Below, in pieces: positions 26,450-41,912 of a stretch of DNA of 64,000 bases. The DNA lies in the NCBI RefSeq assembly GCF_014876775.1, contig NZ_CP062310.1, forward strand, positions 1,341,699 to 1,405,698, written 5' to 3'. The notes under the pieces were generated by a model. The model was not told where the DNA came from and did not search any database. It worked only from the letters and a program-made list of their open reading frames with translations. Position 1 is the first letter of the stretch; every line of letters starts with the position of its first letter. The translations under genes and the position numbers were made by a program. The DNA is from Infirmifilum lucidum (lineage in GTDB: Archaea > Thermoproteota > Thermoprotei > Thermofilales > Thermofilaceae).

Positions 26450-26496
26450 AAAAATCCCATTTTTTACCTTTTTAATATTTCTCCTTCTCTTTTTTC
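26450..26496 (+). terminator. T-rich terminator region
   Basis: Several T runs (cattttttacctttttaat and ctctttttt) follow the small zinc-ribbon gene, as expected for archaeal intrinsic termination. Confidence 0.45.
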
Positions 26497-26511
26497 CGCC
26501 CGCCCGTGCTA

Positions 26512-26740: not shown

Positions 26741-26780
26741 GGTAATACTAGCTCACAAAATAGGTATAAAACAGTTCTCT

Positions 26781-26820
26781 CACGCCTTTGGCGTGCTCTT
26801 CTTGGAAAAAGTTTATATTA
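26781..26820 (+). promoter_or_regulatory. Palindrome and TATA box before FHA membrane gene
   Basis: CACGCC-TTT-GGCGTG (26781-26795) is a perfect inverted repeat about 20 nt before the TATA-like tttatatta (26812-26820), which is about 29 nt from ATG 26845. The palindrome is placed where an upstream activator or repressor could act. Confidence 0.4.
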
Positions 26821-26844
26821 CATGAGGTAACATAGTTGTTTAGT

Positions 26845-27798
26845 ATGAAGGCATACAAAGTAATACTCCCGCTCATTCTTCTTCTACTCATCCTAAGCCC
26901 AGTGTTTGCCCGTATAAACATACATGGTGTTGACTTCTACCTAACAAAAGGCGCTCTTGCTCCAGAGGAAACAAGGTTCAACAGGGGGGAGACAGTATAT
27001 GTCGTCGCAAGCCCGCCAATCCAGGGCGCAACTATCGAAGTAGAAGTACTGCTTATCTTCCCACCCGGGAGCGGTAGACAACCCTTAACTCTCCTTCCTA
27101 GAATTCAAGTCAACCTCCAATCTGAAAAGATCTTGACACAATGGAACGTGCCTTCGAATGCAATTGAAGGAACATATAGCGTTAGGATTCGTGCATGGCG
27201 TCCAGGCGACCCCCAGCCCACTGAAGGAGAACTACCGTTTGAAGTAGGGTCTGAGTGCTTGATCCTTGGGGTTCCTTGTTGGCTATTTGCGGTTGCAATA
27301 ATTTTAGCTGTTGGAGCAGTTGCTGTCGTCGTCACGAGAAAACCTACACCGCCGACCGGCGGCGCAGGTCTCCCTGAAATCGAAGCTAGGGGGATAGGGG
27401 GCGCCGAAACCGTTATCGTAAGAGAGCCCGGTACAATTGCGATCAAACAGCCTTCAGGTGAAACTATAACGGTCGTAGCTCATCTTGAGGCAGGTGGCAG
27501 GATGATTCCCATCGATAGGCTGCCGAGAGTTTATGGCAGAGAAGACTTCCGAGGACTAGTAACGGGTGAAACTCTCAACGTTATAAGCAGGAGACACTTC
27601 GAGATAGGCTATGACTACACTCAGGGAAGCTTCTACATAATGGATCTCGGGAGTAAAAACGGAACCTATCTAAACGGCGAAGACATAAGGGGCAAAGGCA
27701 GAGTCTCGCTCAAAAACGGAGACACGATATCTGTTGCAGGGGTTCTAAACCTACGCTTTGCAACAGGCCCTGGGAGTAGCCCGCCATCTTTATTTTAA
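26845..27798 (+). CDS. Exported/membrane protein with cytoplasmic FHA domain
   Basis: 317 residues. Signal-anchor at 6-22, a beta-sandwich ectodomain to about 145, one membrane helix (CWLFAVAIILAVGAVAVVV, about 150-168), a Pro/Gly linker, and a canonical FHA domain: YGREDFRG, ISRRHFEIGY, DLGSKNGTYLNGEDI, LKNGDTISVAG. All residues that bind phosphothreonine (Arg, Ser, Arg/His, Asn) are present. It would carry an extracellular sensor or adhesion domain and a phosphopeptide reader inside the cell. It begins the + strand pair with the coiled-coil gene and lies next to the kinase/phosphatase operon. Confidence 0.82.
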   Translation: MKAYKVILPLILLLLILSPVFARINIHGVDFYLTKGALAPEETRFNRGETVYVVASPPIQGATIEVEVLLIFPPGSGRQPLTLLPRIQVNLQSEKILTQWNVPSNAIEGTYSVRIRAWRPGDPQPTEGELPFEVGSECLILGVPCWLFAVAIILAVGAVAVVVTRKPTPPTGGAGLPEIEARGIGGAETVIVREPGTIAIKQPSGETITVVAHLEAGGRMIPIDRLPRVYGREDFRGLVTGETLNVISRRHFEIGYDYTQGSFYIMDLGSKNGTYLNGEDIRGKGRVSLKNGDTISVAGVLNLRFATGPGSSPPSLF

Positions 27799-27825
27799 CC
27801 TCATATTTAAAAGAGCACAATAAAT

Positions 27826-28824
27826 ATGTCTCAGGAAGACTTAGAAAAAGAGCTCCTAAGCATACTCATAGAGAGAAGAGATAAGAAAGGATTAGTCGTC
27901 CTTGAGATCCCACAGTTTCTCAAACAGCTCGCAGAGAAGCATGGAAACCTAACTATAGAAGAATTTGAAGCAGCGATAGTTTCACTGGCACGTAAAGGAA
28001 AGATTCAACTCGTAAGTGTCCCTGGGTCGCTTAAAGGCCTTGTGAACTATGTCCGCGAAGAGTTAGAAAACTTGGATGCCAAGTTTTTAGCAGGAGAAAT
28101 ACCTTCTCAGGAATACCAAGTGAAGTTCACGGAGCTAGCCCAGAGCATCAATGAGAACAAGTTAAAGCCACTTACACAAGTTAATTTTAAACAACTATTA
28201 GCCGATATAGCCAGTAGTATAGAATTCTTGGAAAAAAGTAAGGGATCTCTTTCGAAGGGTGAAATTAGTGACGACGTCTATAAGGAACTTTCAGAGCAGT
28301 ATGCCGGCAACCTTCAAGCTCACATCCAGACACTTGAGAGAATACTGAGGGTAGCAGAGAGAAAACTGACAGCGCTGGTGCGAGAGCTGACAATACTCAA
28401 AGCCGACAGCAGAATCAGGGGTGTTACGCCCACTGAAATAGAAAGTGCTCTCAAAGGCAAAGTAGAGAACATAAAGAAATATCTGTCTATGTCTCCCAGC
28501 CCCCCCTCTGTAGGGCTAGAGGAAAGGGTAAAAACTTTGAAGAAACAGTACCAGGAATATAGAGCTCGGGGGCTTATCGAGTCGAACCAAGAGTTGCTGA
28601 AGAAGGCTGAGCTTATTAAACAGGAGGTAGAGAGGCTAGAGGCACAGATTAAGGCTTACACAACATCGCCCGAGATAGCAACTAGTATAAAGAGCATACA
28701 AGACAAACTCCTCGAGTTAAGCAAAGGTGGCATGGTAACAGAGGATTTCGTACAGGCGTTCGAAAAACTCAGAGAAAAGGCAAGTAATATTCAAAGCTTA
28801 CTGAGAAGCATAGAGGCTAAGTGA
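27826..28824 (+). CDS. Coiled-coil protein with N-terminal winged-helix-like region
   Basis: 332 residues, soluble. Residues 1-65 (LEKELLSILIERRDKKGLVVLEI, then EEFEAAIVSLARKGKIQLV) look like a winged helix. The rest is predicted long coiled coil with a central break at SMSPSPPSVG. The segments LAGEIPSQEYQVKF (about 85) and SKGEISDDVYKELSEQY (about 143) carry the G-E-x4-Y motif also found in the cytoplasmic tails of the neighbouring surface and zinc-ribbon proteins. It is co-oriented with the upstream FHA gene and overlaps the PP2C gene tail-to-tail by 8 nt. Probable scaffold; specific function unknown. Confidence 0.6.
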   Translation: MSQEDLEKELLSILIERRDKKGLVVLEIPQFLKQLAEKHGNLTIEEFEAAIVSLARKGKIQLVSVPGSLKGLVNYVREELENLDAKFLAGEIPSQEYQVKFTELAQSINENKLKPLTQVNFKQLLADIASSIEFLEKSKGSLSKGEISDDVYKELSEQYAGNLQAHIQTLERILRVAERKLTALVRELTILKADSRIRGVTPTEIESALKGKVENIKKYLSMSPSPPSVGLEERVKTLKKQYQEYRARGLIESNQELLKKAELIKQEVERLEAQIKAYTTSPEIATSIKSIQDKLLELSKGGMVTEDFVQAFEKLREKASNIQSLLRSIEAK

Positions 28825-30136
28825 AATAGCCAAAATAGGAAACTGAGATATTATCAGGCCCCCCTCGGCTATTCGCTAGACTGACAAGGCTATTTAGAGC
28901 TATTTCCGGGATACGGTGGGACGAGACCAGTCTGAGTATCTCTTCCTCGAATACAACGTCAGACAATCCATCACTGCAGAGGATAATTTTCCTCGGTGGT
29001 ATAAAAACATCTGGATATGAGTAAGTGTCAATCCTCGGTTTCTCCATTCCAATGGCACTAGTTATGATGTTCCTCTGTGGGTGGGTTCTTGCTTGCTCAG
29101 GCGTCAGAAGCCCTCTCTCGACGAGTTCATCAACGTATTTATGATCTCGAGTCAACTGCTGGATAGTGCGCATGTTAGAGTCGACTATGTATAACCTGCT
29201 GTCACCTACATGGGCATATGTCAACTCCCTACCCTTAATCGTAGCAAGGGTGAGAGTTGAAGCCATGTCTGTTTTCATCCTACGCTTGGCGTCAAGTACC
29301 CTCTGGTTCACAAGCTGGACAATACTCCTAAGATCTGAGGCGCTAACACTAAACCTTGAGACAATCGCGTGCAATGCGTGCTTAAGGCCATCCTCCACTG
29401 CAAGAGCGCTTGCCAGCTCGCCATACCCATGCCCCCCAGCCCCGTCTGCAACTCCTGCAAGCCTAAAGACCTCTCGTCTCCTACTCCTAGAAATCTTAAC
29501 GGTTGAGGTGAAACATGAATCCTCGTTATTCTTCCTCCTCCTACCGACATCAGATGCGCACCCAGAAGTAATGAACATTCTGTGCTTAAACTTCTCTTCT
29601 AGCGGAGCGCGGATCACGAGCACCGATAAATCAACGCCGACCTCAGGTGCCAGTTGGTCAACTAAATCGTCAGGTGGCATTGCCGCAGTCACTTTACCAA
29701 GCTTTGTCTCATAAACCTGGTTGAGCCTCTGAGATGCTAGTAACAACACTCCTGAATCAAGGTTTAGGCTTGTCTTTCCCGCGATTTCTTTAAGCCTACC
29801 GCTGTGTCGCAGGTAAAGATATGGGGAACCGCCACTCTCAAAGTAAATTGACCCCCACTTGGTAAATAAAATGGCTTCTTCCCGTGAAAGCCTAAGTGTG
29901 GGCGGATTAATCTCTCCCTTGTGTAACCCGTCTAGGATACTGCTCATCAAGTTAGCCAGAGTGTTCTCCGCGAGGATAGCCTGAACATACGCTTTTATCC
30001 TCTCTCCCGCAATATATGCGTCGAGCGAAAACGAGAAAAGCAGTAGATCATCCATAGAATAAATTGAAGCACCGCTCACCCTCAGGGAGTGACGCTCACG
30101 CCCTCTTCCTAGAGGAGATTTCACCCTCTTAAACAT
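28817..30136 (-). CDS. PP2C-family Ser/Thr phosphatase
   Basis: 439 residues. An N-terminal extension of about 185 residues without a known fold precedes a complete PP2C domain: SDVGRRRKNNEDS, GVADGAGGHGYGELAS, YAHVGDSRLYI, DHKYVDELVERG with the TPEQARTHPQRNIIT loop, LCSDGLSDVV and GGPDNISV. All metal-binding aspartates are present. It would remove phosphate from Ser/Thr of proteins modified by the kinase encoded two genes upstream. Start ATG 30136 overlaps the FHA gene by 8 nt, so kinase, FHA protein and phosphatase are one translational unit. Confidence 0.9.
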   Translation of the reverse strand: MFKRVKSPLGRGRERHSLRVSGASIYSMDDLLLFSFSLDAYIAGERIKAYVQAILAENTLANLMSSILDGLHKGEINPPTLRLSREEAILFTKWGSIYFESGGSPYLYLRHSGRLKEIAGKTSLNLDSGVLLLASQRLNQVYETKLGKVTAAMPPDDLVDQLAPEVGVDLSVLVIRAPLEEKFKHRMFITSGCASDVGRRRKNNEDSCFTSTVKISRSRRREVFRLAGVADGAGGHGYGELASALAVEDGLKHALHAIVSRFSVSASDLRSIVQLVNQRVLDAKRRMKTDMASTLTLATIKGRELTYAHVGDSRLYIVDSNMRTIQQLTRDHKYVDELVERGLLTPEQARTHPQRNIITSAIGMEKPRIDTYSYPDVFIPPRKIILCSDGLSDVVFEEEILRLVSSHRIPEIALNSLVSLANSRGGPDNISVSYFGYFT

Positions 30137-31103
30137 TAGTTTTCCCCTTCTCGGGAGTTTTTATACCTTGCCTAAAGATTAAGCGTATACTATCGGCTAC
30201 TCGGATTTCAGCGCCGTCACTTAGTTTAACCCAGCCCTTCCCCTTGATGGGGACGCCATTAACAAGCGTGGGATTAGTGCTAAAATCGTCGCGTATATAC
30301 ACACCGTCTCGCAAGACTGCTATCCGGAACTGCCCTCCTCTGCTCCTGCGAGAAAGATACATGGCTTTCATGCCGAGGTACGGGGCGAAGTCTTCACGGC
30401 TAAAAACTCTATCTCGAGCTGAAACCTCGAGTGTAAAGTTTTCGCCTACTAAGAAGTAATAAGCTTTTCTCTCAATCAATCTAGCTCGCAAAGCCACCGC
30501 ACCTATGAGAGCCAAAACAGGAATGATGAGAATAAGAGCATATGGAAGCCAGTTAACTCTGCTTGGTTCAGTAGTTTCAATCTCGGGGAAGACTTGCTCA
30601 GCTTGTTGCTGGATGAAAACCTGTACAACAGCGTTCTTAACAGTTACGTTGAAATCTTGTCCCCCTTTACCAGCAGCCTTAAATAATGTTAAGTTCACGC
30701 TCATGGGTTGTTTGCATGAGCCACTTAAAATTCTGAATTCAATGGATGCTATAGTTGTTGAGGGCATTTTCAGAGGCTGTGCGTAGAACAAGTACTTATT
30801 TCCAGGAACTCTGCTTACCGTCCAGTTCCCGCCAGCTTCAACTCTTGTTAGGTTTATGCATCTACTCGTATACGAGAAGTTAAACTCCCCGGATAATATC
30901 TGGTCTGTCGCACTGAAAATAACTAGGTTTAAGGTGAACACTTGAGATGCTGTTACCCTATCCTTGTGAAAACCTACCACTGCTGCAGGCTGGCTTAAAG
31001 CCGTAAATGCGAGAAGACAGGCGGTCAGCGCGGCCAGTAGAGGCCATAACCCCTCTGCCCTCCGGCTCTCTTCTCCGAATCCTATAAACCTAACCATTCT
31101 CAC
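30129..31103 (-). CDS. Membrane protein with ectodomain and cytoplasmic FHA-like domain
   Basis: 324 residues. Signal helix near 20-40, a beta-rich ectodomain to about 165, a Gln/Glu linker, a membrane helix (LPYALILIIPVLALIGAVAL, about 188-207) and a C-terminal FHA-like domain: VFSREDFAPY, LSRRSRGGQFRI, DDFSTNPTLVNGVPI, LSDGAEIRV. The SRRH serine-arginine pair is kept but the His is replaced, so phosphopeptide binding may be altered. ATG 31103 overlaps the kinase stop (ATGA). Same architecture as the FHA gene at 26845, suggesting paralogous receptors. Confidence 0.8.
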   Translation of the reverse strand: MRMVRFIGFGEESRRAEGLWPLLAALTACLLAFTALSQPAAVVGFHKDRVTASQVFTLNLVIFSATDQILSGEFNFSYTSRCINLTRVEAGGNWTVSRVPGNKYLFYAQPLKMPSTTIASIEFRILSGSCKQPMSVNLTLFKAAGKGGQDFNVTVKNAVVQVFIQQQAEQVFPEIETTEPSRVNWLPYALILIIPVLALIGAVALRARLIERKAYYFLVGENFTLEVSARDRVFSREDFAPYLGMKAMYLSRRSRGGQFRIAVLRDGVYIRDDFSTNPTLVNGVPIKGKGWVKLSDGAEIRVADSIRLIFRQGIKTPEKGKTNV

Positions 31104-32335
31104 CGCCCCAGCCTGAAGGAGAGTGTAATATAAGGTGGGCTGGAGAGAGAGCTACCATAAGCGACATAGATGAGCGCGTTGTCACTAAGCTCAAAGGGCT
31201 TACCCTCGACCTTATAGCCAGCCCATATCTCCTTGACCTCACCTTTCACCCTGATAGCTGTCCTGTTAAGAGATCCAAGATCCCTAATAAACCACTTGCC
31301 TCCCTTCTCGAATATCTCGAAGTGCCTCCTAGAAATCCAGTTATATGGGTCATGCACACGAACCTCTATAACGTCCCCATACTTTTCCACGTGAACCCAC
31401 CCACCCTTCACCCCGTCCTCCTCCCTGTAAACCCCCGTCATCTCACCCCTCTTCTCCAGCCTACCAAACCTGAGGATAGGCCTATCGACTTCAATGACCT
31501 TGCCCATAACTTCTAAAACAGGCCTGCCCGCCTCACGGGCCCGAGGCCTATAAGTACCCTCAACCGCCTCCAGCATCTCGCGCGCCGTCAAGAACCTCTC
31601 AGTAGGATCCCAAGCCATAGCCTTAGCCACAACCCCCCTCATCTCGGGGCTCACATCGCGGTTATAAATAGCGGGGTCAGGGGGTTTAGGGGGCCTAGCA
31701 TCGGGGTACCCAGGCAGCGCTACTAGAGGGTGCTGCCCCGTCAGAAGGAAGAAGAGCGTAGCGCCAGCAGACCATACATCAGACTGCGGTGAAGAAAGGT
31801 AGCGGTATTGCTCAGGCGCCGTGTAGCCCCCAGGAGATATGATGGCCTCCCTACGACCAGCCCTGTTGTAGAAGGTGCACGTGCCTAGGTCGATAAGCTT
31901 AAAGCTGCCACGGCCATCAGAGAGCAGGTTCTTGGGTTTAACATCCCTGTGTACAATGTTCATGGAGTGCAAGTAGTCTAAGCCCAGCAGAGTCTGGGCA
32001 ATTACAGACCTAGCCTTCCCCTCCTCCATAGGTACCCCTCGAATGACGGACTCCAAGTCCCCACCTGGGAGGTACTCTAGAACGAGAAACGGGAGACTAC
32101 CATAAACGCCATCATCCACGTAACGTACAACATGAGGGTGGGCAATACGCTTGACGACGTCGATTTCAAACTTTAGCTTCTCCACAGCTATAGGGTCTTC
32201 CCGGGGAAACTTAACGACATAGTAGTCCCGCGAGTAGTCGCTCGCAGCCAGCCACAAAACACTCATACCCCCGTGGCTTAATAGCCTGAGAAGCCTGTAT
32301 GAGCCACGGGCCCCGTGGAGAACAGCCCCTGACAT
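31100..32335 (-). CDS. Ser/Thr protein kinase with C-terminal FHA domain
   Basis: 411 residues, no membrane helix. The kinase domain (about 13-265) has glycine loop LSHGGMSVLW, VAIK-like YVVKFPRED, catalytic HRDVKPKNLL, LIDLGT (DLG in place of DFG), SPGGYTAPEQ and DVWSAGATLFFLLTG. This is the bacterial Hanks-type (PknB-like) class, unusual beside typical archaeal RIO/piD261 kinases. The FHA domain (about 285-400) shows ILRFGRLEK, WISRRHFEIF and RDLGSLNRTAI. First gene of the kinase-FHA-PP2C operon. A TATA box (CTTATAAG, about 32361-32369) is 26-34 nt before ATG 32335, so the message is probably leaderless. Confidence 0.93.
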   Translation of the reverse strand: MSGAVLHGARGSYRLLRLLSHGGMSVLWLAASDYSRDYYVVKFPREDPIAVEKLKFEIDVVKRIAHPHVVRYVDDGVYGSLPFLVLEYLPGGDLESVIRGVPMEEGKARSVIAQTLLGLDYLHSMNIVHRDVKPKNLLSDGRGSFKLIDLGTCTFYNRAGRREAIISPGGYTAPEQYRYLSSPQSDVWSAGATLFFLLTGQHPLVALPGYPDARPPKPPDPAIYNRDVSPEMRGVVAKAMAWDPTERFLTAREMLEAVEGTYRPRAREAGRPVLEVMGKVIEVDRPILRFGRLEKRGEMTGVYREEDGVKGGWVHVEKYGDVIEVRVHDPYNWISRRHFEIFEKGGKWFIRDLGSLNRTAIRVKGEVKEIWAGYKVEGKPFELSDNALIYVAYGSSLSSPPYITLSFRLGR

Positions 32336-32360
32336 GCCTAGATGTAAAAAAAGAAAAGGA

Positions 32361-32395
32361 ACTTATAAGCTTTGCTTAAGGCCAAAAGTTTTTAT
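32361..32395. promoter_or_regulatory. Divergent promoters of kinase operon and surface gene
   Basis: ACTTATAAGC (32361-32370) is about 30 nt from the kinase ATG at 32335 on the minus strand. AGTTTTTATTAGAC (32385-32399) is about 28 nt from the GTG at 32421 on the plus strand. Confidence 0.45.
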
Positions 32396-32420
32396 TAGAC
32401 AGGATGATCTAAGAAAAAAT

Positions 32421-33881
32421 GTGCAGAGAGTAGCCCTAATTACGTTAATCTGTCTCATAGTCCTACTCCCGCACACCCTCCCAACACTCAAAGCCCAACC
32501 ACAGCAAATAACCCTTCAATTGTTAGAGCCAAGTGAGAATCCCTTGAAAAATGCACAAGTAATCATCATACTCATACCACTGGAGCCTATCATAAAAACA
32601 GGTAACACTAATGAGACGGGACACTTAAACTTAAGCCAAGTGGAATTTAAAAGATTTATCCTTACTATTTACGCCATCCACACCACTGGTATCTACTACA
32701 ACACTACTCGTGTGGATAATTTAAGTGATATAAACAGAAAAAGCTTTACACTTAAAAGATATACTGATAAAACAGAGATCTTATATAATAATAGCCCCAT
32801 TAAAGACTCCACTCCAATAGAAATTACTGGGAAAAATAAAATTATAACACCATCATTTATAGTACGCAATAAGGTATTTGGAATCAAGGAAATCAAAATT
32901 ACTATCAATAATAGTGACATTGCTTGTGAATATAAGAACGCGACTGATTGTATGTTTATGCTTATGCTTAAAGAGGATGGAAATTATACGGTCAAAATAA
33001 ACGTAACCAATTATGCTAACATATCCCATTCTTACACATACAACGTTATACGTGATACAGGAGTAAGTCTACCCAGTAACTGGTTTAGCCCCATAAACGA
33101 TGGTGTAACGATTTCTGCGAACGAGATTGTTAATATCACGTCACTCAGACTTAATGATAAACCTCTAGACAGTCAAATTATAAGCGGTAACGGAACTAAG
33201 AAAATAGTTATCAATGTTACGCGGGCCGGAGCTATACTCTGCCAGCGTAACATCTTGAGCTTCACGCTTAAGGACATATACGGAAATAGCCTAGACGTAA
33301 GTAAAACTATCTATGCATGCCCTAGAGTTAATGTTACTAACGCTGATGTAGCCCTCGTTTGGGTTACGAGCAGGGACGGGATTCTAGCCTGTAGCAGGGG
33401 CTCCTGTCTTTCTAACCTCACAGCTGGGGAGAGAGAGAAAGATGTAACCATTTTATTCACAGTGAAAGGCAAAGATTTTCTTTATAATTATAGCTCTAAA
33501 TTGCTGATAAGGTTCTCGAATAAGTCTATACCTATACATATACCTAAATACACGAAAGAGAGTGTAACAGGGGCTAAAGAGGTTCTTCTAAATGCAAGTG
33601 GGTTCTATTACTGGGCGAAGCCCCAGGAGATTAACAGTCCCTGGATTCTTTTACGCGAGGCCTTCAATCCTGGCCTTGGACTCGTAGAAGTCAGGCTAGT
33701 AGCGGCGAAGACGAGTGAAGGTATTCTTCCTTGTGACGGCTCTATCAGGGCCTTGAGGGGGGTTGGGTTTGTGCTTATACTTGCTGCAGTGACCCTGTTG
33801 ATGGGCCTGGAGTACGTTGTTCTCACGAGGCGTAGAGCCCCACTGCCGTACTACGGTGAAGTCAACCTAGAGATAAGCTAG
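32421..33881 (+). CDS. Exported Ig-like surface protein with C-terminal membrane helix
   Basis: 486 residues from GTG 32421, which opens a clean signal peptide (VALITLICLIVLLPHTLP). The ectodomain is Asn/Thr/Ile-rich with many N-glycosylation sequons. It reads like serial beta-sandwich domains: QITLQLLEPSENPLKNAQV resembles a carboxypeptidase-regulatory or PEGA-like module. A C-terminal helix (GVGFVLILAAVTLLMGLEYVV) is followed by a short cytoplasmic tail. Its coding sequence is markedly more AT-rich than its neighbours, suggesting foreign origin or fast evolution. It is divergent from the kinase operon, hence a possible partner. Confidence 0.6.
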   Translation: MQRVALITLICLIVLLPHTLPTLKAQPQQITLQLLEPSENPLKNAQVIIILIPLEPIIKTGNTNETGHLNLSQVEFKRFILTIYAIHTTGIYYNTTRVDNLSDINRKSFTLKRYTDKTEILYNNSPIKDSTPIEITGKNKIITPSFIVRNKVFGIKEIKITINNSDIACEYKNATDCMFMLMLKEDGNYTVKINVTNYANISHSYTYNVIRDTGVSLPSNWFSPINDGVTISANEIVNITSLRLNDKPLDSQIISGNGTKKIVINVTRAGAILCQRNILSFTLKDIYGNSLDVSKTIYACPRVNVTNADVALVWVTSRDGILACSRGSCLSNLTAGEREKDVTILFTVKGKDFLYNYSSKLLIRFSNKSIPIHIPKYTKESVTGAKEVLLNASGFYYWAKPQEINSPWILLREAFNPGLGLVEVRLVAAKTSEGILPCDGSIRALRGVGFVLILAAVTLLMGLEYVVLTRRRAPLPYYGEVNLEIS

Positions 33882-33920
33882 AAAAAAATTTAAATAAACC
33901 GTCCTAGTAATAAAAAACGT

Positions 33921-34535
33921 ATGACTACCATTTTCAAAGCTTCAAGCCTCATTATCGGAATAATTGTCCTCCTCCTAGGTCTGATTACTACAGTAGGGGG
34001 TCTCATCTTTCTCGCCTCCGGGCCTCCCTGGAGTGCCGCGGGAGTTTTACCTCTCGTTCTCGGCTTGATCCTTCTCGCTGCCGGATTTATGCTTGCTTAC
34101 AACGCGATGAAAACTCCAACGCCACCGCCTCCACCGCCACCAACCCCTCCTCTACCCCCTCCTCCTCCGTCTTATCCGACTAGGATACTCTCCCCTACTC
34201 CTTCTCCCGCCCCTCCCACAACTAAAGTAGTTTTGGCTAGGCTCGAGGCTCCGGGCGGGTCTCTCTTTGTGACAGAGCCTACCCAGGAGTTCCGGAGGAG
34301 CGACTTCCAGGGCATTGCCCCGCCGGGCTTGCTCGATGCAATTAGCCAGAGCAAGCCGCAGTTTATCATATACTTTCGCGGTGGGCAGTTCTTCATAGAG
34401 GACTCTATGAGTACTAACGGGACGCTGTTGAATGGCAGGCAGATTAAAGGCACGGGGCTGCAGCCTCTTAAAGATGGCGACGTCATAAGCCCTGCTGGCG
34501 TGATAAACTTGACGTTTAGGACAGGAGGGGCCTGA
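33921..34535 (+). CDS. Membrane-anchored FHA-like protein with polyproline linker
   Basis: 204 residues. Two N-terminal membrane helices (about 8-30 and 35-55), a striking Pro-rich linker (TPPPPPPPTPPLPPPP type, about 66-95), then an FHA-like domain: EFRRSDFQGI, IIYFRGGQFFIED, SMSTNGTLLNGRQI, LKDGDVISPAG. The SxxH recognition loop is missing (SQSKPQFIIYF), although the NGTLLNG loop is kept. It may have lost phosphopeptide binding or bind differently. It is followed 12 nt later by the zinc-ribbon membrane gene and shares its strand. Confidence 0.75.
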   Translation: MTTIFKASSLIIGIIVLLLGLITTVGGLIFLASGPPWSAAGVLPLVLGLILLAAGFMLAYNAMKTPTPPPPPPPTPPLPPPPPSYPTRILSPTPSPAPPTTKVVLARLEAPGGSLFVTEPTQEFRRSDFQGIAPPGLLDAISQSKPQFIIYFRGGQFFIEDSMSTNGTLLNGRQIKGTGLQPLKDGDVISPAGVINLTFRTGGA

Positions 34536-34547
34536 GGAAGCTGGGGC

Positions 34548-35564
34548 ATGTCCCGGGGGAGCACGCGCACCGAGTACTTATCCCCGGCTTTTATCACCGC
34601 GTACACGGTTGCGTTTATCCTCTCTGTTCTAGCACGGCTTCAACCCTTCATCTACCTTTTCATTTTCCTCGTAGGTTTGCTAGTGGTGTTGCTCGTAGAG
34701 TTTGATTCAGTGGAGAGGTTTGTTCTCGGGGTTACAGTTTTATTTGCGATGTTTTTCTGCTATCTCCTACCTGCAGAGGTAGCATTCATCCCTCTAGCCT
34801 CACATATGGGTGAAAAATACAGGAGAAGCCTGCTCGTCTCAAGCCTTCTAGTATACCTTGTAGTACCTTTTCTATTATTTAAATCTCCTATAAAGGTACT
34901 ACAAGTTTCCGCTTCACTCCCTATCTTGTTTGCGACGTGGGCAAGCAGTTATGTATCGATTCACGGTACAGGCAGGAGATTCCTCCTCAATCTTTTCTCA
35001 CAATTTACTGTATTTTCACTGGTCTATTCTCTTCTCTTCTTCCTTCTTTTTTCCATCAATTTGTTGTATTTTCACTGGTTTATTTCTTCCTTCGTTACAT
35101 ATGCCGGCTCGCTTCTTGCTGGTGGCTTGGTTGTCTACTTTTACCGCTTACACGTGGAAGGGGCTCGTAGAGCATCACTCGTGTCTGATTTTTTCGAAAC
35201 TCTCTCCTGGATATCTAGACGTTACCTAGATTTCTTCCACGAGCGTGTAAGCGGGGCTCCTGGTACGGGTTTAGCTTTTGAAGACGAGCTCAGAGTGCTT
35301 GATGGTCTTCTAAGGGCTGAGGTTGAGAAGTACTCGGGGTACCTTGCAAGACTTGAAGACCTTCACTCGAGGGGAGAAGTGGATACGGAGACCTATAGTA
35401 GGCTCAAGAAGGAGTATGAGGAATCTCTCGCTGAGTTGAGTGCCTCTCTGAGTGGCCTCAAAAAGAGGCTTGTTGAAAGCGGTTGGTGGGTTTGTGCTGA
35501 GTGCGGGGAGGTCAACCCTCCCGTACTCACGAAGTGTAGGAAGTGCGGGAGAGGCTCCCCCTAG
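34548..35564 (+). CDS. Polytopic membrane protein with coiled coil and C-terminal zinc ribbon
   Basis: 338 residues. About seven to eight membrane helices (residues 15-220), a cytoplasmic coiled coil (about 240-310) with the motif SRGEVDTETYSRLKKEYEES, and a zinc ribbon CAECGEVNPPVLTKCRKCG. A 56-bp imperfect tandem duplication at 35001-35112 lies inside a membrane segment; 56 is not a multiple of 3, so the second unit is read in another frame. Its 3' 450 bp are duplicated in inverted orientation at 54271-54722. It ends overlapping the surface-protein gene by 4 nt, tail to tail. Function unknown. Confidence 0.6.
   Translation: MSRGSTRTEYLSPAFITAYTVAFILSVLARLQPFIYLFIFLVGLLVVLLVEFDSVERFVLGVTVLFAMFFCYLLPAEVAFIPLASHMGEKYRRSLLVSSLLVYLVVPFLLFKSPIKVLQVSASLPILFATWASSYVSIHGTGRRFLLNLFSQFTVFSLVYSLLFFLLFSINLLYFHWFISSFVTYAGSLLAGGLVVYFYRLHVEGARRASLVSDFFETLSWISRRYLDFFHERVSGAPGTGLAFEDELRVLDGLLRAEVEKYSGYLARLEDLHSRGEVDTETYSRLKKEYEESLAELSASLSGLKKRLVESGWWVCAECGEVNPPVLTKCRKCGRGSP
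35001..35112 (+). repeat. 56-bp imperfect tandem duplication inside a membrane gene
   Basis: caattt..tgtattttcactggt.tatt begins at 35001 and again at 35057, each followed by a pyrimidine-rich stretch. The duplication changes frame between units, yet the ORF stays open. Confidence 0.6.
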
Positions 35565-36380
35565 GAGTAGGGGCACTCTTTCCTTATTTTCTCAAGCTCG
35601 TCGAGGTATTCCTGCCTGAGCTTGCCGTAGACTTCTGGGTCTAGCTCCCCCTTCATCTCTTCGAGCTTTTTGAGCTTACCCTCTGCTTCATGGATCCTCT
35701 CGAGGCAGTAGTCCCTAACGCGCGTACCCTCTACTCCCCTTCCCTTAACTGTAGTCTTCTTCAATGCCTGGAGGAGAGGCACGCGTGCAACGTAACCTTT
35801 AGCGGCGAGGAATACAGACAGGGCACCGAGCAGTGAGATGACAGCTAGTATGGTTGCGAGCGGCGTATAGTCCTTCCTCCACTCAGCCTCTAGCTCTTTG
35901 GGGGCGTCGACCCTTATGTAGGCAACACCCCTGCTAACTTCTTCAGAGTCGTAGGGGCCCAGCCCTCTCCAGCCAGCAAAGACGTCCCGTACGGGAAAGC
36001 CTATTGAAGTCTCTTTTACACCAACTTCGATGCTACTGCCCTCAGGGTGCCAGCCCGAGTAGCTCTTACCTAGGTTTCTCATGCAGGTTCCGTCCCCCCT
36101 ACAGACGTATATTTCCCCTACAGGAGAATATACAGAGACTTTGTACTCTTTAGCCCACTTTGCCACAGCTACCTTCGGGGAGTTCATGACTATAGGCTCA
36201 GACCTCTGCCCCTGCCCCCTGGCATCGCCGCTCCACCCTTGGAAGGCCCACCTACTCTTATCATCAATAGGTATAATTGTTGTGTTGATGGAGGCATAAG
36301 CTGTCGCCCCCTCGTCGTACCAGCCTGAGCCTGTTGCACTGCCCTGCTCGCTGACAACTTCAAGGTAGTATTGTTTAGCC
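35111..36380 (+). repeat. Long inverted repeat, left arm (about 1.27 kb)
   Basis: Nearly identical to the reverse complement of 53455-54722. It contains the 3' end of the zinc-ribbon membrane gene and the 3' two fifths of the convergent surface-protein gene. Differences seen are scattered substitutions and a 3-nt indel (ctt near 35307). Confidence 0.92.
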
Positions 36381-37660
36381 CAGATGGCCTCAAGCCTTAC
36401 TGGCCTGTCTGCCGTAAAGGTCACCTCCGGTGAATTAGAGGAAATATCGCCGCTCCAGCCCTTAAAGACGTACCTCTCGCCTCTGCCCCCCTGGACGACT
36501 TTATCCACAACCTTTACTTTCACTGTTGAGCCAAGAGGGTACCAGCCGCCCCCCTCGACTACACCCACTTGCGACCTCACGTCTACGAGAACCTCGGTCT
36601 TCTCAGCGTATATGGCTTCCAGCTTAGCAGGGTTTTGCAGGGCTATAATCCTCGGGTTATCTTTCACCCCGTCACTCCAGTGCGAGAAAACTAGGCTCTT
36701 CCTGTAGGTAGGAGTAGCATCAAGAGGAATTGAAGCTTGGGCAGACAACCTATATGTCGTACCACTAGTTAGCCAGAATGTTGCAGGAGTTCTCGACCTA
36801 ATGTTGTCCAGGTATACTTCTACAGGTATCCCTGAAACAATATCCAGCCTGACTTCAAGCGTGTAGGTGAAAGTCAGCGTCTGAGCCGATGCCAGGTATA
36901 TACTCTGGACATTGTTGCTGCAGGTAAACCTTGTGTAATCATCCTTGTATACAGTCTTTTCAACCTCTATGAGGTAGTTACCTTCGTCGAGGTATAGCGT
37001 GAGCCCTGAAGACGAAGTGGATCCCTTCGGGTAGCCGTTGACCTTGACTGTCGCGGTGAGGCCAGGAGGAAGCCCCGAAGCTATAATTGTGACCCTAGGT
37101 TTTAACTCGATAGTGTACTTGGATGGAGCCGCTTCGTAGCTCGGGTTTTCCCACAGGACATAACTTGGTGAAGAAACTTTAGGGGAGGGGCTTGCCGAGT
37201 AGATTTTTACTCCTCGTTCAGCATATACTTCTACTTTGTCAAACCACCCCCTACCCTCCACCTTGAACGGGTCTATAAAAACGACGACGCCGTCTTGGGG
37301 GTTTGAGTACCGCGCGTTACGTAAGTCCACTTCGACGATGCTGTAGACTATGTGGTTGGCGTCATCAGCACCCGTTCCCAAAAGTTTTACGTCGCTGGCA
37401 CCGAACATGAGAATTACCCTATTTGTTAAGCCTATTGCATATTCCTGCTCGTGCCCAACGTAGTATTGCTGTTTCCACGTCTCCCAATCCACGCCTATGG
37501 GCGAGATGTAAGCTATGACAACGACGCTTTGCAAACTTTTTATTATAACCTGGTTCCCCACATAGTAGCTAGGCTGGGCACGCAGCTTGCCAGGAAGGAC
37601 TAGGAGGAGAAGCAGTGCAACTATAATAACTACTTTTTTAACGAATGTCTGCAACTCCAT
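35561..37660 (-). CDS. Large surface protein with InlB-like beta repeats
   Basis: 699 residues. Signal peptide (VVIIVALLLLLVLPGKLRA), N-terminal domain of unknown fold, a PEGA-like region (ATVKVNGYPKG, YLDEGNYLIEVEK), then at least four repeats of the divergent InlB B-repeat type, each centred on a GWSGD-like core (FSHWSDG, FKGWSGD, FQGWSGD, FAGWRGL) and ending in an LEAIWA or VAVAKWA strand. A membrane helix (LATILAVISLLGALSVFLAA) and a cytoplasmic coil with KGELDPEVYGKLRQEY close it. The last two repeats, helix and tail are shared almost identically with the protein at 50921. Likely adhesin or S-layer-associated receptor. Confidence 0.7.
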   Translation of the reverse strand: MELQTFVKKVVIIVALLLLLVLPGKLRAQPSYYVGNQVIIKSLQSVVVIAYISPIGVDWETWKQQYYVGHEQEYAIGLTNRVILMFGASDVKLLGTGADDANHIVYSIVEVDLRNARYSNPQDGVVVFIDPFKVEGRGWFDKVEVYAERGVKIYSASPSPKVSSPSYVLWENPSYEAAPSKYTIELKPRVTIIASGLPPGLTATVKVNGYPKGSTSSSGLTLYLDEGNYLIEVEKTVYKDDYTRFTCSNNVQSIYLASAQTLTFTYTLEVRLDIVSGIPVEVYLDNIRSRTPATFWLTSGTTYRLSAQASIPLDATPTYRKSLVFSHWSDGVKDNPRIIALQNPAKLEAIYAEKTEVLVDVRSQVGVVEGGGWYPLGSTVKVKVVDKVVQGGRGERYVFKGWSGDISSNSPEVTFTADRPVRLEAIWAKQYYLEVVSEQGSATGSGWYDEGATAYASINTTIIPIDDKSRWAFQGWSGDARGQGQRSEPIVMNSPKVAVAKWAKEYKVSVYSPVGEIYVCRGDGTCMRNLGKSYSGWHPEGSSIEVGVKETSIGFPVRDVFAGWRGLGPYDSEEVSRGVAYIRVDAPKELEAEWRKDYTPLATILAVISLLGALSVFLAAKGYVARVPLLQALKKTTVKGRGVEGTRVRDYCLERIHEAEGKLKKLEEMKGELDPEVYGKLRQEYLDELEKIRKECPYS

Positions 37661-37689
37661 ACTATGGTTAAAGGTTGTTAGAGGTTTAA

Positions 37690-38469
37690 TTAAATTTCCT
37701 TAAGGGGGTTCTTGGAGATCTGGTTCAGCGATACTCTAATTACGTAGCCTTTCCTCGCGCCCTCTACTAGTACTGCTAAAACACTATCCCTGCCAACATC
37801 TAGTATGCGGGCTAGTAGGGGGAGGGTAGTACTGTCTAAGCTGACGAGTATAAAATCACCCCTAGTTGCAGAGTAGACATCCCCTTTGGAGACAAGCCGA
37901 AAATAAGTCATCCTGTTAACCGTGTCGACTATATCCTGGTATTCCCTTGTTTTAACTCCTGCTGCAAGGACGAGCTGTGGCCTCCTCCTCTCAATATCAT
38001 CTAGAATTTCCTCCACGTTCGTCTTGGGGGAGAATGCCGACGAGTACCGGATTGTCACGGCCTTCGTTTTCCCTAGGAAGGGTTCAGGGATAATTCTACT
38101 GGGTATAATCCCCCTCGCGCTCAAGTGGTCAAATGCGGACTCTGCACCTACGTGTTCAACGTACGAGTCTACCAGGTACACTATTAGAGGAACTACTTCC
38201 GAGGAATGCTCATCCACGTATATTGTTACAAACTTCCAGAACTGGTGGTCTAGGCCCGTGAAACTAGCAAAGCTTTTCTCTGTCACGACCTTTGCACCAA
38301 CCCTATAGCCCAAGTCCATATACCTCTTCGCGACTCTTAGGCAGAAACTCCCGACGGAGTGGAGGTCTCTTGGAGACACTCTTACGTGAAGCTTCCACCC
38401 CCTGCCGTTACGTATTAGGTGAGCCCCTACGTAGACAAAGGTATCGCCTCCACTACTGTGGGCGTTCAC
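37690..38469 (-). CDS. Stand-alone protein resembling the phospho-Ser/Thr lyase domain of class III lanthipeptide synthetases
   Basis: 259 residues, soluble. Residues 24-30 (GWKLHVR), 76-85 (QFWKFVTIYV) and 139-146 (TIRYSSAF) match the order and spacing of the N-terminal lyase domain of LanKC/RamC-type synthetases (GWKLHVSA, GKFITVYP, YYRYGSF). That domain uses a Lys-x-His pair and a second Lys to remove phosphate from pSer/pThr by beta-elimination. Here the equivalents are Lys26, His28 and Lys79. No kinase or cyclase domain is fused. It sits between two surface-protein genes beside the kinase/PP2C operon. The relation is by recalled motif only and needs a profile search; otherwise it is a hypothetical protein. 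Confidence 0.4.
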   Translation of the reverse strand: MNAHSSGGDTFVYVGAHLIRNGRGWKLHVRVSPRDLHSVGSFCLRVAKRYMDLGYRVGAKVVTEKSFASFTGLDHQFWKFVTIYVDEHSSEVVPLIVYLVDSYVEHVGAESAFDHLSARGIIPSRIIPEPFLGKTKAVTIRYSSAFSPKTNVEEILDDIERRRPQLVLAAGVKTREYQDIVDTVNRMTYFRLVSKGDVYSATRGDFILVSLDSTTLPLLARILDVGRDSVLAVLVEGARKGYVIRVSLNQISKNPLKEI

Positions 38470-38522
38470 ACCATACTCAATACGCGGGGGGTATAAAACA
38501 GTGGTTCACGCAGTCTAAAAGG

Positions 38523-38534
38523 CTTAAATATAAG
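38523..38534 (+). promoter_or_regulatory. TATA box of the VWA-dockerin gene
   Basis: cttaaatataag lies about 28 nt upstream of ATG 38557, fitting a leaderless message. Confidence 0.5.
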
Positions 38535-38556
38535 CTTTCTAATTTAAACGAAATTG

Positions 38557-41500
38557 ATGGTAAAGAAAGCCATCACATCATTCCTTCTAATTTCCCTATT
38601 AGTCTCAACGGTTTTCCTCAAAACAATAAAAACTCAGACAATACCTGACGATGTGTACTCGCATTTACTAAAAGGGGAAAGCGTTACAGGTTGGGTAGAG
38701 GTAAAATATGGTAATACAACGCTTATAAACTACACGCTCTCAAGCGGAGAATACCTCCTATACAGCGTTGGCACAGGCTCTGTAGTCCTCGGAAAGAAAT
38801 GGTTTATGCCTGAAAGCGAAAGCCTAGACGTTTTCGCCATAGCATTCTACGACTCCCGGAAACCCCTCAAAGATCTCAGTGCCTACGACTACTGGGTGAG
38901 AGGGTCACATTGGAAAAGAGGAGTCGAAAAAGGGGAAGAATACCTGAATAAACGCCAGATTCAAGGAGCACTGGCTACACTAGCCGTAGTAGCTGTTCTC
39001 TTTGCCCTCTTTCCCCCTTCTTCAGCAATAGCTCTCTGTCTCTTCGCGCTATCTGCTACCACTGATTTTATCACTACGCTATCTAAAATAGAAGAGAACT
39101 TTAAACTGGGCCCTGAGACTTCTCCAAAGCTATATTTCGTGTTGGCCTTTATTGCGAGTAATATGGATGAAAAAGCGAGGGAAGCCTCGGACGAGTTTGA
39201 ATCCTTACTAAATAAAATTTCGGATGAGGAATTCAAAGAGACAGTCAAAAGTCTTAAAGATTTCAACATGTTCGTGGAGGGCTCTCGCGAATTAGCGAAA
39301 TACTATACTCTTCTCTCCACTATAGTCGCATACAAGGCTCTAAGCGGGACGATGCAACCCGAAACTGTGGAGAAAGTAATTTCTTTCTACGTCTTCGATG
39401 AAGGTCATAATAAAGCACGGGAGTTCTTGAATACGCTGGAGAATTGGTATGCCGGCAATATTAATCCAGGTGAACTTGGAGACAAGCTTTTAAACATTAT
39501 AGCCGCCGACGCCGTCAGAATAGGAGTTTCAGCGGCACTAAAGTTCGCGAAAGATTACTTTATAATCGAAGCTTTTAAAGGTAGCGACAAGATTATGGGC
39601 TTCCACTACATCCACTCCTCTCTACTGTCTTCTCTCTATGGTACCATGGCTAATTTGAAAAGTAAGATAGACAAGGGCGGGGTTGAGCCGAGCCTCTCGT
39701 TAGTGTCTAAGTTGTTGTTCTATGATTACCTAACCTATGAGCTTGAACTTGAATACTGGGAAGGGCTGAGTAAGCTGGATTGTAGCGATATATATGATCT
39801 TCCAGGCGAGCTACGTGATTTCCTAGGGCTCAAGCCTCCTAGCTGGACTCCAGGGACACAAACTGAGAGGTACTGCGCTCAGGTCAAAAGTCTATTTGAT
39901 CTCTCTCGCATTCTTGTTTCATCATCTAGCGCTGGGGCCTTGAAGAGGCAGCTCGAGTACTATGAGAGTCTTCGCGACGCGTATGAGAGGTACAGGAGTA
40001 TTATGGCTAAGAGGCGAGGAGATCTTGTCCCGGGTAGTGGTGTAAATGTTATGCTGGTTGTAGATGTTTCGGGGAGTATGGATGATAGCTTCAGGGGTGC
40101 TAGGAAGATTGACGCCGCTATTGACGCTGCTAAGACTTTCATCTCGCTGCTATCTCCAAGCGACAGAGCCGGTATTGTAAAGTTTTCGGACTCAGCGTCG
40201 CTGGTGGCCCCCCTCACCGGCGATAAAACCGCCCTGTACCAGTTGCTCGGTACTCTAACCCCCGAGGGCATGACTGCGATCGGCGATGGATTGAAGCTGG
40301 CTTTGAGCGAGCTCGACAAAGTTAGTGGCGTCAGAGCAGTAGTGCTACTTACGGATGGCAAAAACAATGCAGGACAATATAATCCCGTTGACGTGGCTCA
40401 CGAAGCGTCGGCGAAAAATATCCCCGTATTCACTCTCGGCTTCGGTGAGAAGGGAGACATTGATGAAGACCTGCTCAAGAGGATAGCGTTGATTACCAAC
40501 GCGCTGTACTTTTACGCGCCCTCCCCCGAGGATCTCAAGAAGATATATTCCATGCTTGCCATTAGAACTGTAGGTGGCGTCCCGATATACCACCTTGTGT
40601 CTACAGTTAAGCAGGGGGAGGAGAAGAAGGTAGAAATTGAAGTTACGCGCGACATGGACTTCGTAGGGGCCCGGCTCTCATACGTGGGGAGTCTCATAAA
40701 CCTAACCCTGATTAGCCCGAGTGGAAGGGTAATTAGAGGCGTCGAATCATACGTAGCTAGGACAAGCATGCCTGGATACGAGTCAGTAATCGTGTACAAC
40801 CCAGAGCCCGGCCTCTGGAGAGTCGTCGTAAGAGGAGTCCAAGTCCCACAGGGAGGCGAGAGCTTTACACTAGTGGTGTATAGGCCCAGTATAGTCGTAG
40901 ACCGGAGGGTCGTGTCGGCGAGTGCGAGGCCCGGGGAGAGAGTTACAGGCACTATCACGATCAGAGCTCTCCAGCCAGTTACAAACCTGGGAGTCGAAGT
41001 CCGGGGCGAGTTAGCAGGTCTTATGCGCGTATCGCCCTCTAGCGTTCCTCGGGTTGAGCAGGGAGGCGTTGCAACCATAAGTTACGATATAACCGCTCCC
41101 ACCGACGCCGCGAGGCCCGTGCTTACAGGTACTATTGTTATAAGAGTTGGCGTTTTAAACACGTTCATTCCAGTGACGCTAGCTCTCAAGTCGCTCATTC
41201 TCAACGTGATGGTGAACGAAACGAAGTTCATAGAGGGCGAAAAACTAGCTGTCACTGCCCTGGTAAGCAACTTGACGGGAGCTAGACTCGCTGGAGCGAG
41301 AGTAGAGATGAAGTACCTGGGAACAGCCGTGTTATTAAACGAGACTAGTGAAAGCGCCTACACGGCTACTATACCTCTAAAGGCTAGGGGCTCGGTGAAG
41401 ATAGAGTTCACAGCTACTTACGCCGACTACCCACCATCAAGGTACTCCCTGACCGTCCAAGTATTCCCACGCGGCGATGTAAACACTGATGGCGTAGTTG

Positions 41501-41640
41501 ACTACAGGGACGTCGCACTAGTAATAGCGAACTACGGCAACACCACCATTAACCGTTTCATAGATCTAAATAGAGACTCCATAGTCGACTACAGAGACCT
41601 AGCCATAATACTGGGAAACTACGGGCAAACCTCCCATTGA
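38557..41640 (+). CDS. Secreted VWA-domain protein with C-terminal dockerin
   Basis: About 1027 residues. A signal peptide (1-27) precedes a helical region with a hydrophobic stretch near 130-170. A complete VWA domain follows at about 496-675, whose MIDAS is DVSGSMDD (from Asp503), TPEGMTAIGDG and LLTDGKNN. Then come beta-sandwich domains (SARPGERVTGTITIRALQP, FIEGEKLAVTALVSNLTGA), and a C-terminal type I dockerin pair (GDVNTDGVVDYRDVALVI and IDLNRDSIVDYRDLAIIL, about 974-1024) with two Ca2+-binding loops. It should be an exported, metal-dependent adhesion protein that can dock onto a cohesin. No cohesin is recognised in the window. Start ATG 38557 is chosen over TTG 38554. Confidence 0.85.
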   Translation: MVKKAITSFLLISLLVSTVFLKTIKTQTIPDDVYSHLLKGESVTGWVEVKYGNTTLINYTLSSGEYLLYSVGTGSVVLGKKWFMPESESLDVFAIAFYDSRKPLKDLSAYDYWVRGSHWKRGVEKGEEYLNKRQIQGALATLAVVAVLFALFPPSSAIALCLFALSATTDFITTLSKIEENFKLGPETSPKLYFVLAFIASNMDEKAREASDEFESLLNKISDEEFKETVKSLKDFNMFVEGSRELAKYYTLLSTIVAYKALSGTMQPETVEKVISFYVFDEGHNKAREFLNTLENWYAGNINPGELGDKLLNIIAADAVRIGVSAALKFAKDYFIIEAFKGSDKIMGFHYIHSSLLSSLYGTMANLKSKIDKGGVEPSLSLVSKLLFYDYLTYELELEYWEGLSKLDCSDIYDLPGELRDFLGLKPPSWTPGTQTERYCAQVKSLFDLSRILVSSSSAGALKRQLEYYESLRDAYERYRSIMAKRRGDLVPGSGVNVMLVVDVSGSMDDSFRGARKIDAAIDAAKTFISLLSPSDRAGIVKFSDSASLVAPLTGDKTALYQLLGTLTPEGMTAIGDGLKLALSELDKVSGVRAVVLLTDGKNNAGQYNPVDVAHEASAKNIPVFTLGFGEKGDIDEDLLKRIALITNALYFYAPSPEDLKKIYSMLAIRTVGGVPIYHLVSTVKQGEEKKVEIEVTRDMDFVGARLSYVGSLINLTLISPSGRVIRGVESYVARTSMPGYESVIVYNPEPGLWRVVVRGVQVPQGGESFTLVVYRPSIVVDRRVVSASARPGERVTGTITIRALQPVTNLGVEVRGELAGLMRVSPSSVPRVEQGGVATISYDITAPTDAARPVLTGTIVIRVGVLNTFIPVTLALKSLILNVMVNETKFIEGEKLAVTALVSNLTGARLAGARVEMKYLGTAVLLNETSESAYTATIPLKARGSVKIEFTATYADYPPSRYSLTVQVFPRGDVNTDGVVDYRDVALVIANYGNTTINRFIDLNRDSIVDYRDLAIILGNYGQTSH

Positions 41641-41912
41641 CACCCCTACACTTACGAGAAACACACCCCCGGTCAGGGTTGTTTGACAGGACTAATAATC
41701 TCCTCCATAAGAGGAACTGGGGGCCTCCTCAACTTTACTGACAGACAGTGCTGCCAGTAGTATACAAAGCCCTCAAATAGTTTAGAACTTTTCTCTCAGC
41801 TGGAGCCTCCAAGAGTCAAAAATTAGAACAACTCTAGTAAATGGTTAGATATTCAAACTAAATGTTTATTAAACTCTAAGATTCAGTTGGATTTGTAAAA
41901 AAGGTGGAAGGC
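41641..41912. other. Intergenic stretch before peroxiredoxin
   Basis: No ORF is supported. An AT-rich segment (41810-41890) probably contains the peroxiredoxin promoter, and AAAGGTGG at 41900-41907 is a good ribosome binding site 5 nt before ATG 41913. Confidence 0.5.

What the first reader, a model, noticed from the sequence alone, without database searches (positions are those of the whole stretch)
26845..41640. Archaeal phospho-signalling and surface-protein island: kinase-FHA, PP2C, three membrane FHA proteins, phospholyase-like protein, VWA-dockerin
Seen: a Hanks-type kinase fused to FHA, a membrane FHA protein and a PP2C phosphatase form one overlapping operon (28817-32335). Within 10 kb on either side are two further membrane FHA proteins, a coiled-coil protein, InlB-repeat and Ig-like surface proteins, a protein resembling a pSer/pThr lyase, and a secreted VWA protein with a dockerin. 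Known: bacterial kinase-PP2C-FHA sets and TerY-type VWA-PP2C-kinase triads control secretion or stress responses. Inference: this is a membrane-spanning system in which ectodomains sense or adhere, FHA domains read phosphothreonine inside, and kinase/phosphatase/lyase write and erase it. I know of no described archaeal system with this combination.
Basis: partly seen in the sequence, partly recalled or inferred. Interest (0 to 1): 0.85.

Follow-up and report, generated by a model that had tools for sequence, protein, structure and literature searches.

The report
Archaeal phosphothreonine signalling–surface protein island
A heat-loving archaeon has acquired an 18-kb gene island that joins a protein kinase, its phosphatase and several membrane proteins that read phosphothreonine to adhesin-like surface proteins, and the same core recurs in at least eleven other archaeal genomes, so it looks like a real but undescribed signalling system rather than a chance cluster.

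Summary
Kinase-FHA, membrane-FHA and PP2C genes overlap in one operon; two more membrane FHA proteins, an InlB-repeat protein and a secreted VWA-dockerin lie beside it. The cluster is a genomic island: its flanking genes (DolK, peroxiredoxin) are adjacent in three same-genus relatives. The kinase-FHA recurs (near) full-length in 12 of 81 class genomes; PP2C is present in 10 of these 12 and in 1 of the other 69 (p=4e-10). A membrane FHA protein and an InlB-type surface protein also recur, in G063 and G064 co-directional with PP2C. In two genomes the island carries VWA-FHA proteins and a type IV pilus machine whose motor ATPase ends in FHA. The VWA-dockerin, Ig, coiled-coil and lyase-like proteins are NOT part of the recurring core. 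The lyase-like protein has no relative in 398 Thermoproteota genomes but keeps the ordered catalytic blocks of lanthipeptide-synthetase phospho-lyases (z=8.4); structure prediction did not confirm this. Best reading: an archaeal kinase-PP2C-FHA pathway controlling surface adhesion or pilus machinery, with a locally added candidate phospho-lyase.

The parts
26836..27798 (+). Membrane FHA protein 1: signal/TM, ~110-aa ectodomain, TM 148-166, cytoplasmic FHA with intact GR / SRRH / NG motifs; E-T-x-V motif (Thr192) before the FHA
   Evidence: (FHA 55 bits); ortholog in G019 (L050, 104 bits)
27826..28824 (+). Coiled-coil protein, no recurring homolog found
28817..30136 (-). PP2C phosphatase (Stp1-type, metal-binding motifs intact) with a 190-aa N-terminal extension of unknown type
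   Evidence: (193 bits); extension has no Pfam hit
30129..31103 (-). Membrane FHA protein 2; FHA lacks the conserved His of SxxH (degenerate)
31100..32335 (-). Hanks-type Ser/Thr kinase with C-terminal FHA; catalytic residues intact
32334..33881 (+). Surface protein with N- and C-terminal TM, weak Ig-like matches; not recurring
33921..34535 (+). Membrane FHA protein 3: two TM, proline-rich linker, FHA lacking the conserved His
34548..35564 (+). Five-TM protein with cytoplasmic helical hairpin and zinc ribbon
35561..37660 (-). InlB-repeat surface protein, signal peptide, C-terminal TM and cytoplasmic helical tail
37690..38469 (-). Candidate phosphothreonine/phosphoserine lyase: K26-x-H28, K60 (or R56), K79, E129, R141 in LanL/LanKC order; C-terminal domain unknown
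   Evidence: no homolog in 398 Thermoproteota genomes
38554..41640 (+). Secreted VWA protein with dockerin-like C terminus; not recurring
18871..19443 (-). Fifth FHA protein of the genome, no predicted TM, inserted between CBS and phosphoribosyltransferase genes that are neighbours in G005
24095..41903 (.). Extent of the genomic island between DolK (ends 24094) and peroxiredoxin (starts 41904); GC about 0.41-0.53 over most of it against 0.53-0.59 in the flanks

Best explanation
This is an acquired genomic island encoding a threonine-phosphorylation pathway that controls cell-surface adhesion or appendage proteins. The kinase-FHA writes phosphothreonine on cytoplasmic Thr motifs (candidates: acidic E-E/A-T-x-V/I sites just before FHA domains). 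FHA domains on membrane proteins, whose ectodomains face outside, bind these marks and assemble or gate surface complexes that include the InlB-repeat protein. PP2C resets the mark. In related islands the same pathway is wired to a type IV pilus motor whose ATPase carries its own FHA. In this genome a locally added lyase-like protein may remove the phosphate irreversibly by beta-elimination. Shown: gene content, recurrence, operon overlap, intact catalytic motifs, island insertion. Inferred: phosphorylation targets, topology, regulation of the surface proteins, and the lyase activity.
For: Kinase-FHA full-length or nearly so (269-623 bits) in 12 of 81 class genomes, absent from all other genomes of its own family. 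PP2C in 10 of these 12 and in 1 of the other 69, p=3.8e-10. Kinase and PP2C overlap start-to-stop in G028, G047, G057 and G059. Membrane FHA, InlB and PP2C co-directional beside the kinase in G063 and G064. InlB-profile hits only in loci of genomes that have the kinase. VWA-FHA fusions and, in G028 and G047, a T2SSE ATPase with C-terminal FHA, T2SSF and rows of pilin-like genes in the same islands. Three tandem EETxV/L motifs before the ATPase FHA in both genomes; EETxV enriched in island proteins 3-fold, p=0.002. Empty site in G001, G005, G006.
Against: No expression, phosphoproteomic or genetic data. Two of the five FHA domains lack the conserved His. In this genome no pilus ATPase lies near the island. 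Surface proteins other than the InlB protein are unique to this genome. The EETxV enrichment was a post hoc choice. InlB-type repeats are common on archaeal surfaces in general.
Confidence: 0.6

Rival explanations
1. Only the kinase-FHA, membrane-FHA and PP2C genes form a system; the surface, VWA and lyase-like genes are unrelated passengers of a variable genomic island (hotspot).
For: VWA-dockerin, Ig-like, coiled-coil and lyase-like genes recur nowhere. G003 carries an unrelated ~10-kb insertion between DolK and NurA. A 1270-bp inverted duplication at 97.7% shows recent reshuffling here.
Against: InlB protein lies between membrane FHA and PP2C in G063 and G064 and beside the module in G028, G047, G057, G060, so at least that surface protein belongs.
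Confidence: 0.25
2. An anti-phage defence module built on a Ser/Thr kinase.
For: Kinase domain matches PADLOC kinase models (PD-T4-6, mad6); patchy distribution and island location are typical of defence.
Against: Matches are to the generic kinase domain; apart from a weak PP2C hit (PDC-M21C, 26 bits) and a weak coiled-coil hit (LmuB, 20 bits) no other component of those systems is present; secreted and membrane surface proteins and pilus genes do not fit; lyase, VWA and TM-FHA proteins have no PADLOC hit.
Confidence: 0.07
3. The kinase plus lyase-like protein make dehydroamino acids for thioether cross-links (lanthipeptide-like chemistry) in a secreted product.
For: Lyase-like blocks resemble LanL/LanKC; PMC4159009 proposed such chemistry for other archaeal lyases.
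Against: No LanC-like cyclase in the genome, no obvious small Cys/Ser/Thr-rich precursor gene noted, and PP2C plus FHA point to signalling. Spontaneous cyclisation is not excluded.
Confidence: 0.05

Closest known systems
Sulfolobus archaellum regulatory network ArnA (FHA) / ArnB (VWA) / ArnC-ArnD kinases / PP2A (PMC6509490, PMC5300886, PMC7472852)
   Same: FHA, VWA, Hanks-type kinase and phosphatase acting together on a type IV pilus-like surface structure in Thermoproteota
   Different: Arn uses PP2A, acts on archaellum expression, and ArnA/ArnB are never found in pilus or archaellum loci (PMC4858521); here PP2C, membrane FHA proteins, a kinase-FHA fusion and surface proteins lie in one island, in two genomes with an ATPase-FHA fusion
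Myxococcus Kil (Tad-like) contact-dependent killing apparatus (PMC8460266)
   Same: Tad/type IV-like motor ATPase fused to FHA, several FHA proteins in the locus
   Different: Kil ATPase has an N-terminal FHA and is bacterial; the archaeal fusion is C-terminal and sits with kinase, PP2C, VWA-FHA and InlB proteins
Bacterial T6SS threonine phosphorylation pathway PpkA-PppA-Fha and mycobacterial PknB-PstP-FhaA/B (own knowledge)
   Same: Kinase, PP2C and FHA scaffold encoded together, controlling an envelope machine
   Different: Kinases with other sensor domains; no archaeal surface proteins; unrelated effector machinery
TerY-type VWA-PP2C-kinase triads (own knowledge for the name)
   Same: Kinase, PP2C and VWA genes adjacent; present in other Thermoproteota (L107, L108, L109, L110, L111)
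   Different: Those kinases and PP2Cs score only 22-42 bits against this island's profiles versus 270-370 for island members; no FHA hit in those loci
LanL/LanKC N-terminal phospho-lyase domain and OspF-family phosphothreonine lyases (PMC10604976, PMC4159009)
   Same: Ordered KxH, K, K(F), acidic residue, R motif positions in the candidate lyase
   Different: Free-standing in an archaeon, not fused to kinase and cyclase, with a different C-terminal domain; no significant full-length similarity

Membership tests
Kinase-PP2C-FHA threonine phosphorylation module | Catalytically intact Hanks-type kinase | tested here: met
   Invariant GGM, K42, E57, HRD, N136, D149, PE in the seven-member alignment
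Kinase-PP2C-FHA threonine phosphorylation module | PP2C phosphatase with metal-binding motifs, genetically linked | tested here: met
   NED, DGAGG, GDSR, SDG, PDN visible in the sequence; Stp1 193 bits; linkage in other genomes
Kinase-PP2C-FHA threonine phosphorylation module | FHA domains with phosphothreonine-binding residues | tested here: met
   GR, SxxH and NG-type residues intact in FHA 1; GR and SRRH with N-R-T in the kinase FHA; degenerate in membrane FHA 2 and 3 (sequences)
Kinase-PP2C-FHA threonine phosphorylation module | Actual phosphorylation and dephosphorylation of partners | not testable with these tools
   Needs biochemistry
TerY-type VWA-PP2C-kinase triad | Cytoplasmic TerY-like VWA next to PP2C and kinase of that family | tested here: not met
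   Island kinase and PP2C belong to a separate family (scores 22-42 versus 270-370 bits); the VWA here is secreted
Archaeal type IV pilus locus | T2SSE ATPase and T2SSF platform genes in the locus | tested here: not met
   Met in G028 and G047 but not in this genome's island
Phosphothreonine lyase (LanL/LanKC/OspF superfamily) | Catalytic Lys-x-His, Lys base, phosphate-binding Lys/Arg, acid, Arg in order | tested here: met
   K26, H28, K79, E129, R141 at near-family spacing (53 versus 52; 12 versus 11-12) with K60 5 residues off and a 16-residue insertion; block score z=8.4 against shuffles, next best of 1105 ORFs far lower
Phosphothreonine lyase (LanL/LanKC/OspF superfamily) | Lyase fold | tested here: inconclusive
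   Single-sequence AlphaFold pLDDT 43-61; no lyase among the top 50 Foldseek hits
Phosphothreonine lyase (LanL/LanKC/OspF superfamily) | Significant sequence membership of a curated family | tested here: not met
   Only hit of 18950 NCBIfam models is LanL lyase part, E 0.0086, far below cut-off; no Pfam hit
Class III/IV lanthipeptide synthetase system | LanC-like cyclase | tested here: not met
   No PF05147 match in the genome

The most novel reading that the evidence does not exclude
An archaeal signalling island in which a kinase, a reversible eraser (PP2C) and an irreversible eraser (a free-standing phosphothreonine lyase) act on the same FHA-read marks of surface proteins: a phospho-lyase of the lanthipeptide-synthetase type used for signalling in Archaea, within a pathway that elsewhere drives a pilus motor through an FHA-fused ATPase.
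Probability: 0.3. Interest if true: 0.85.

Novelty: new variant of a known kind. Interest (0 to 1): 0.62.

Why it matters
Ser/Thr phospho-signalling in Archaea is known mainly from the Sulfolobus archaellum network. A separate, horizontally spreading kinase-PP2C-FHA pathway tied to adhesin-like proteins and, in two genomes, to a pilus motor with its own FHA domain would show that Archaea control surface machines post-translationally in the way bacterial T6SS and Kil systems are thought to be controlled, and it names the proteins and candidate Thr sites for testing. If the lyase is real, it would be a LanL/SpvC-type phospho-lyase in an archaeon, a type reported as exclusively bacterial (PMC4159009).

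Tried and rejected
Lyase homolog searches in 61, 81 and 398 genomes, plasmids, viral and genome contigs gave only chance matches (those looked at matched other protein types). Local HMMER of a LanKC/LanL core profile was not significant by itself (rank 1 but E 1.7), and whole-profile alignment gave z=4.6 with close real-protein rivals. The three-block test, using blocks conserved within LanKC/LanL, separated it clearly. hhalign on a single sequence gave no usable alignment. AlphaFold without homologs was weak and Foldseek found no lyase. The idea that the PP2C N-terminal extension is a second, dead PP2C was not supported (score about 0 bits). Defence assignment rejected.
Full report
OBSERVATION. 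The genes described are there. On the minus strand, kinase-FHA (31100-32335), a membrane FHA protein (30129-31103) and a PP2C (28817-30136) overlap by 4 and 8 bases, order kinase, FHA, phosphatase. Pfam and NCBIfam confirm kinase (131 bits), FHA and PP2C (Stp1 model 193 bits), InlB repeats, VWA (79 bits) and a dockerin at 22.8 bits against a cut-off of 22.9. The 'Ig-like' protein has only weak matches. Kinase and PP2C catalytic residues are intact; FHA 1 keeps GR, SxxH and NG and the kinase FHA keeps GR and SRRH, but membrane FHA 2 and 3 have lost the His.

ISLAND. In three same-genus genomes (G001, G005, G006) the flanking genes DolK and peroxiredoxin are neighbours, followed by NurA and HerA as here; in this genome 17.8 kb lies between them. 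GC falls to about 0.41-0.53 over most of the island against 0.53-0.59 in the flanks. The fifth FHA gene is inserted separately between two genes that are adjacent in G005. G003 has another, unrelated insertion between DolK and NurA, so the site is a hotspot. None of the other genomes of the same family has the kinase-FHA.

RECURRENCE. A profile of the kinase-FHA finds 12 of 81 class genomes with full-length or near-complete members (623 down to 269 bits, then a gap to 187 and below). PP2C is present in 10 of these 12 and in 1 of the 69 others (Fisher p 3.8e-10); one further kinase genome, G064, has a PP2C next to the kinase that my local profile detects and which the Pfam-based count did not include. 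In G028, G047, G057 and G059 kinase and PP2C overlap start to stop. G063 and G064 have kinase, membrane FHA, InlB-type surface protein and PP2C in under 6 kb, the last three on one strand. InlB-profile matches occur in loci of nine of the twelve kinase genomes and in no fetched locus of genomes lacking the kinase; the three without are G059 and two genomes (G019, G076) where the kinase lies on a 4-6 kb contig. Further from the class, G338, G160 and G145 show related arrangements. It succeeds for the rest: the VWA-dockerin, Ig-like, coiled-coil and lyase-like proteins match nothing in the related islands except FHA or VWA domains themselves.

PILUS LINK. In G028 and G047 the island continues into a type IV pilus locus: a T2SSE ATPase with a C-terminal FHA domain, a T2SSF platform protein, six or seven consecutive small genes with pilin-like N termini, and large secreted proteins. 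The fusion was found only in those two of 81 class genomes. Just before the ATPase FHA both have three tandem EETxV/L motifs; single E-E/A-T-x-V/L/I motifs precede the FHA of membrane FHA 1 here and of its relatives in G019 and G063, and one follows the FHA of the fifth FHA protein; EETxV is enriched three-fold in island proteins (12 versus about 4 expected, p 0.002, post hoc). By analogy with the ETT sites ahead of FHA domains in bacterial GarA/OdhI (own knowledge) these are the best candidate phosphosites. In this genome no pilus ATPase lies near the island.

CANDIDATE LYASE. The 259-aa protein at 37690-38469 has no homolog in 398 Thermoproteota genomes, plasmids or scanned contigs. Its N-terminal 150 residues hit one NCBIfam model of 18950, LanL, in the lyase part, E 0.0086, positions 20-95 to 19-92. 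ThurKC lyase needs Lys65, His67, Lys94, Asp152 and Arg163 for full activity, with Lys117 contributing (PMC10604976). The window protein has K26, H28, K79 (53 after K26; 52 in the family), E129 and R141 (12 after E129; 11-12 in the family), with K60 five residues off the Lys94 position and a 16-residue insertion. Scoring the conserved blocks with family spacing gives 24.6 against shuffles -17.8 +/- 5.1 (4000 shuffles, maximum 6.2) and a next-best real ORF of 6.1 among 1105. Most of that score comes from the first two blocks. Single-sequence AlphaFold models were poor (pLDDT 43 and 61) and Foldseek listed no lyase among its top 50. I put homology to the lyase domain at about 0.6 and a phospho-lyase role in this pathway at about 0.3. 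There is no LanC cyclase in the genome, which argues against lanthipeptide synthesis.

MECHANISM. Most likely the kinase phosphorylates Thr in cytoplasmic tails and linkers of island membrane proteins; FHA domains on membrane proteins bind them and assemble or gate surface complexes; PP2C, and perhaps the lyase, end the signal. Topology (outside ectodomain, inside FHA) is inferred from signal and TM positions only.

NOVELTY. Full-text searches found no description of such an archaeal island (open-licence papers only). Closest are the Arn network, whose FHA and VWA genes are reported never to lie in pilus loci (PMC4858521), and the bacterial Kil apparatus with FHA on its ATPase (PMC8460266). 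It is a new archaeal variant of the kinase-PP2C-FHA theme.

Noticed in passing
window 35111-36380 and 53455-54721: Inverted 1270-bp duplication at 97.7% identity carrying the C-terminal ends of the InlB protein and of the convergent five-TM zinc-ribbon gene; in the second copy the InlB repeats, TM and tail are fused to a C25 (gingipain-family) peptidase ectodomain (50921-54274), suggesting recent ectodomain swapping on a constant C-terminal cassette.
   Followed up: partly
L045:3410-7371 and L047:76-3980: Archaeal T2SSE ATPase with C-terminal FHA and three tandem EETxV/L motifs, followed by T2SSF, next to rows of pilin-like genes and the kinase-PP2C island; only these two of 81 class genomes have the fusion.
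   Followed up: partly
window 24094-41904; L131:7148-17861: The DolK-peroxiredoxin/NurA junction carries different insertions in two genomes of the genus (17.8 kb here, about 10 kb in G003): an integration hotspot without a tRNA in the window.
   Followed up: partly
window 24256-24957: AbrB-like protein and a short second ORF that reads like a PIN-type toxin fragment at the left edge of the island, a possible toxin-antitoxin remnant (by eye, no family search).
   Followed up: no
L107, L108, L109, L110, L111: A separate VWA-PP2C-kinase triad without FHA, only distantly similar, occurs in other Thermoproteota genomes.
   Followed up: no
window 28817-30136, residues 1-190: PP2C carries a 190-aa N-terminal extension without Pfam match; the G019 PP2C (L052:9365-10522) has an extension too.
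   Followed up: partly
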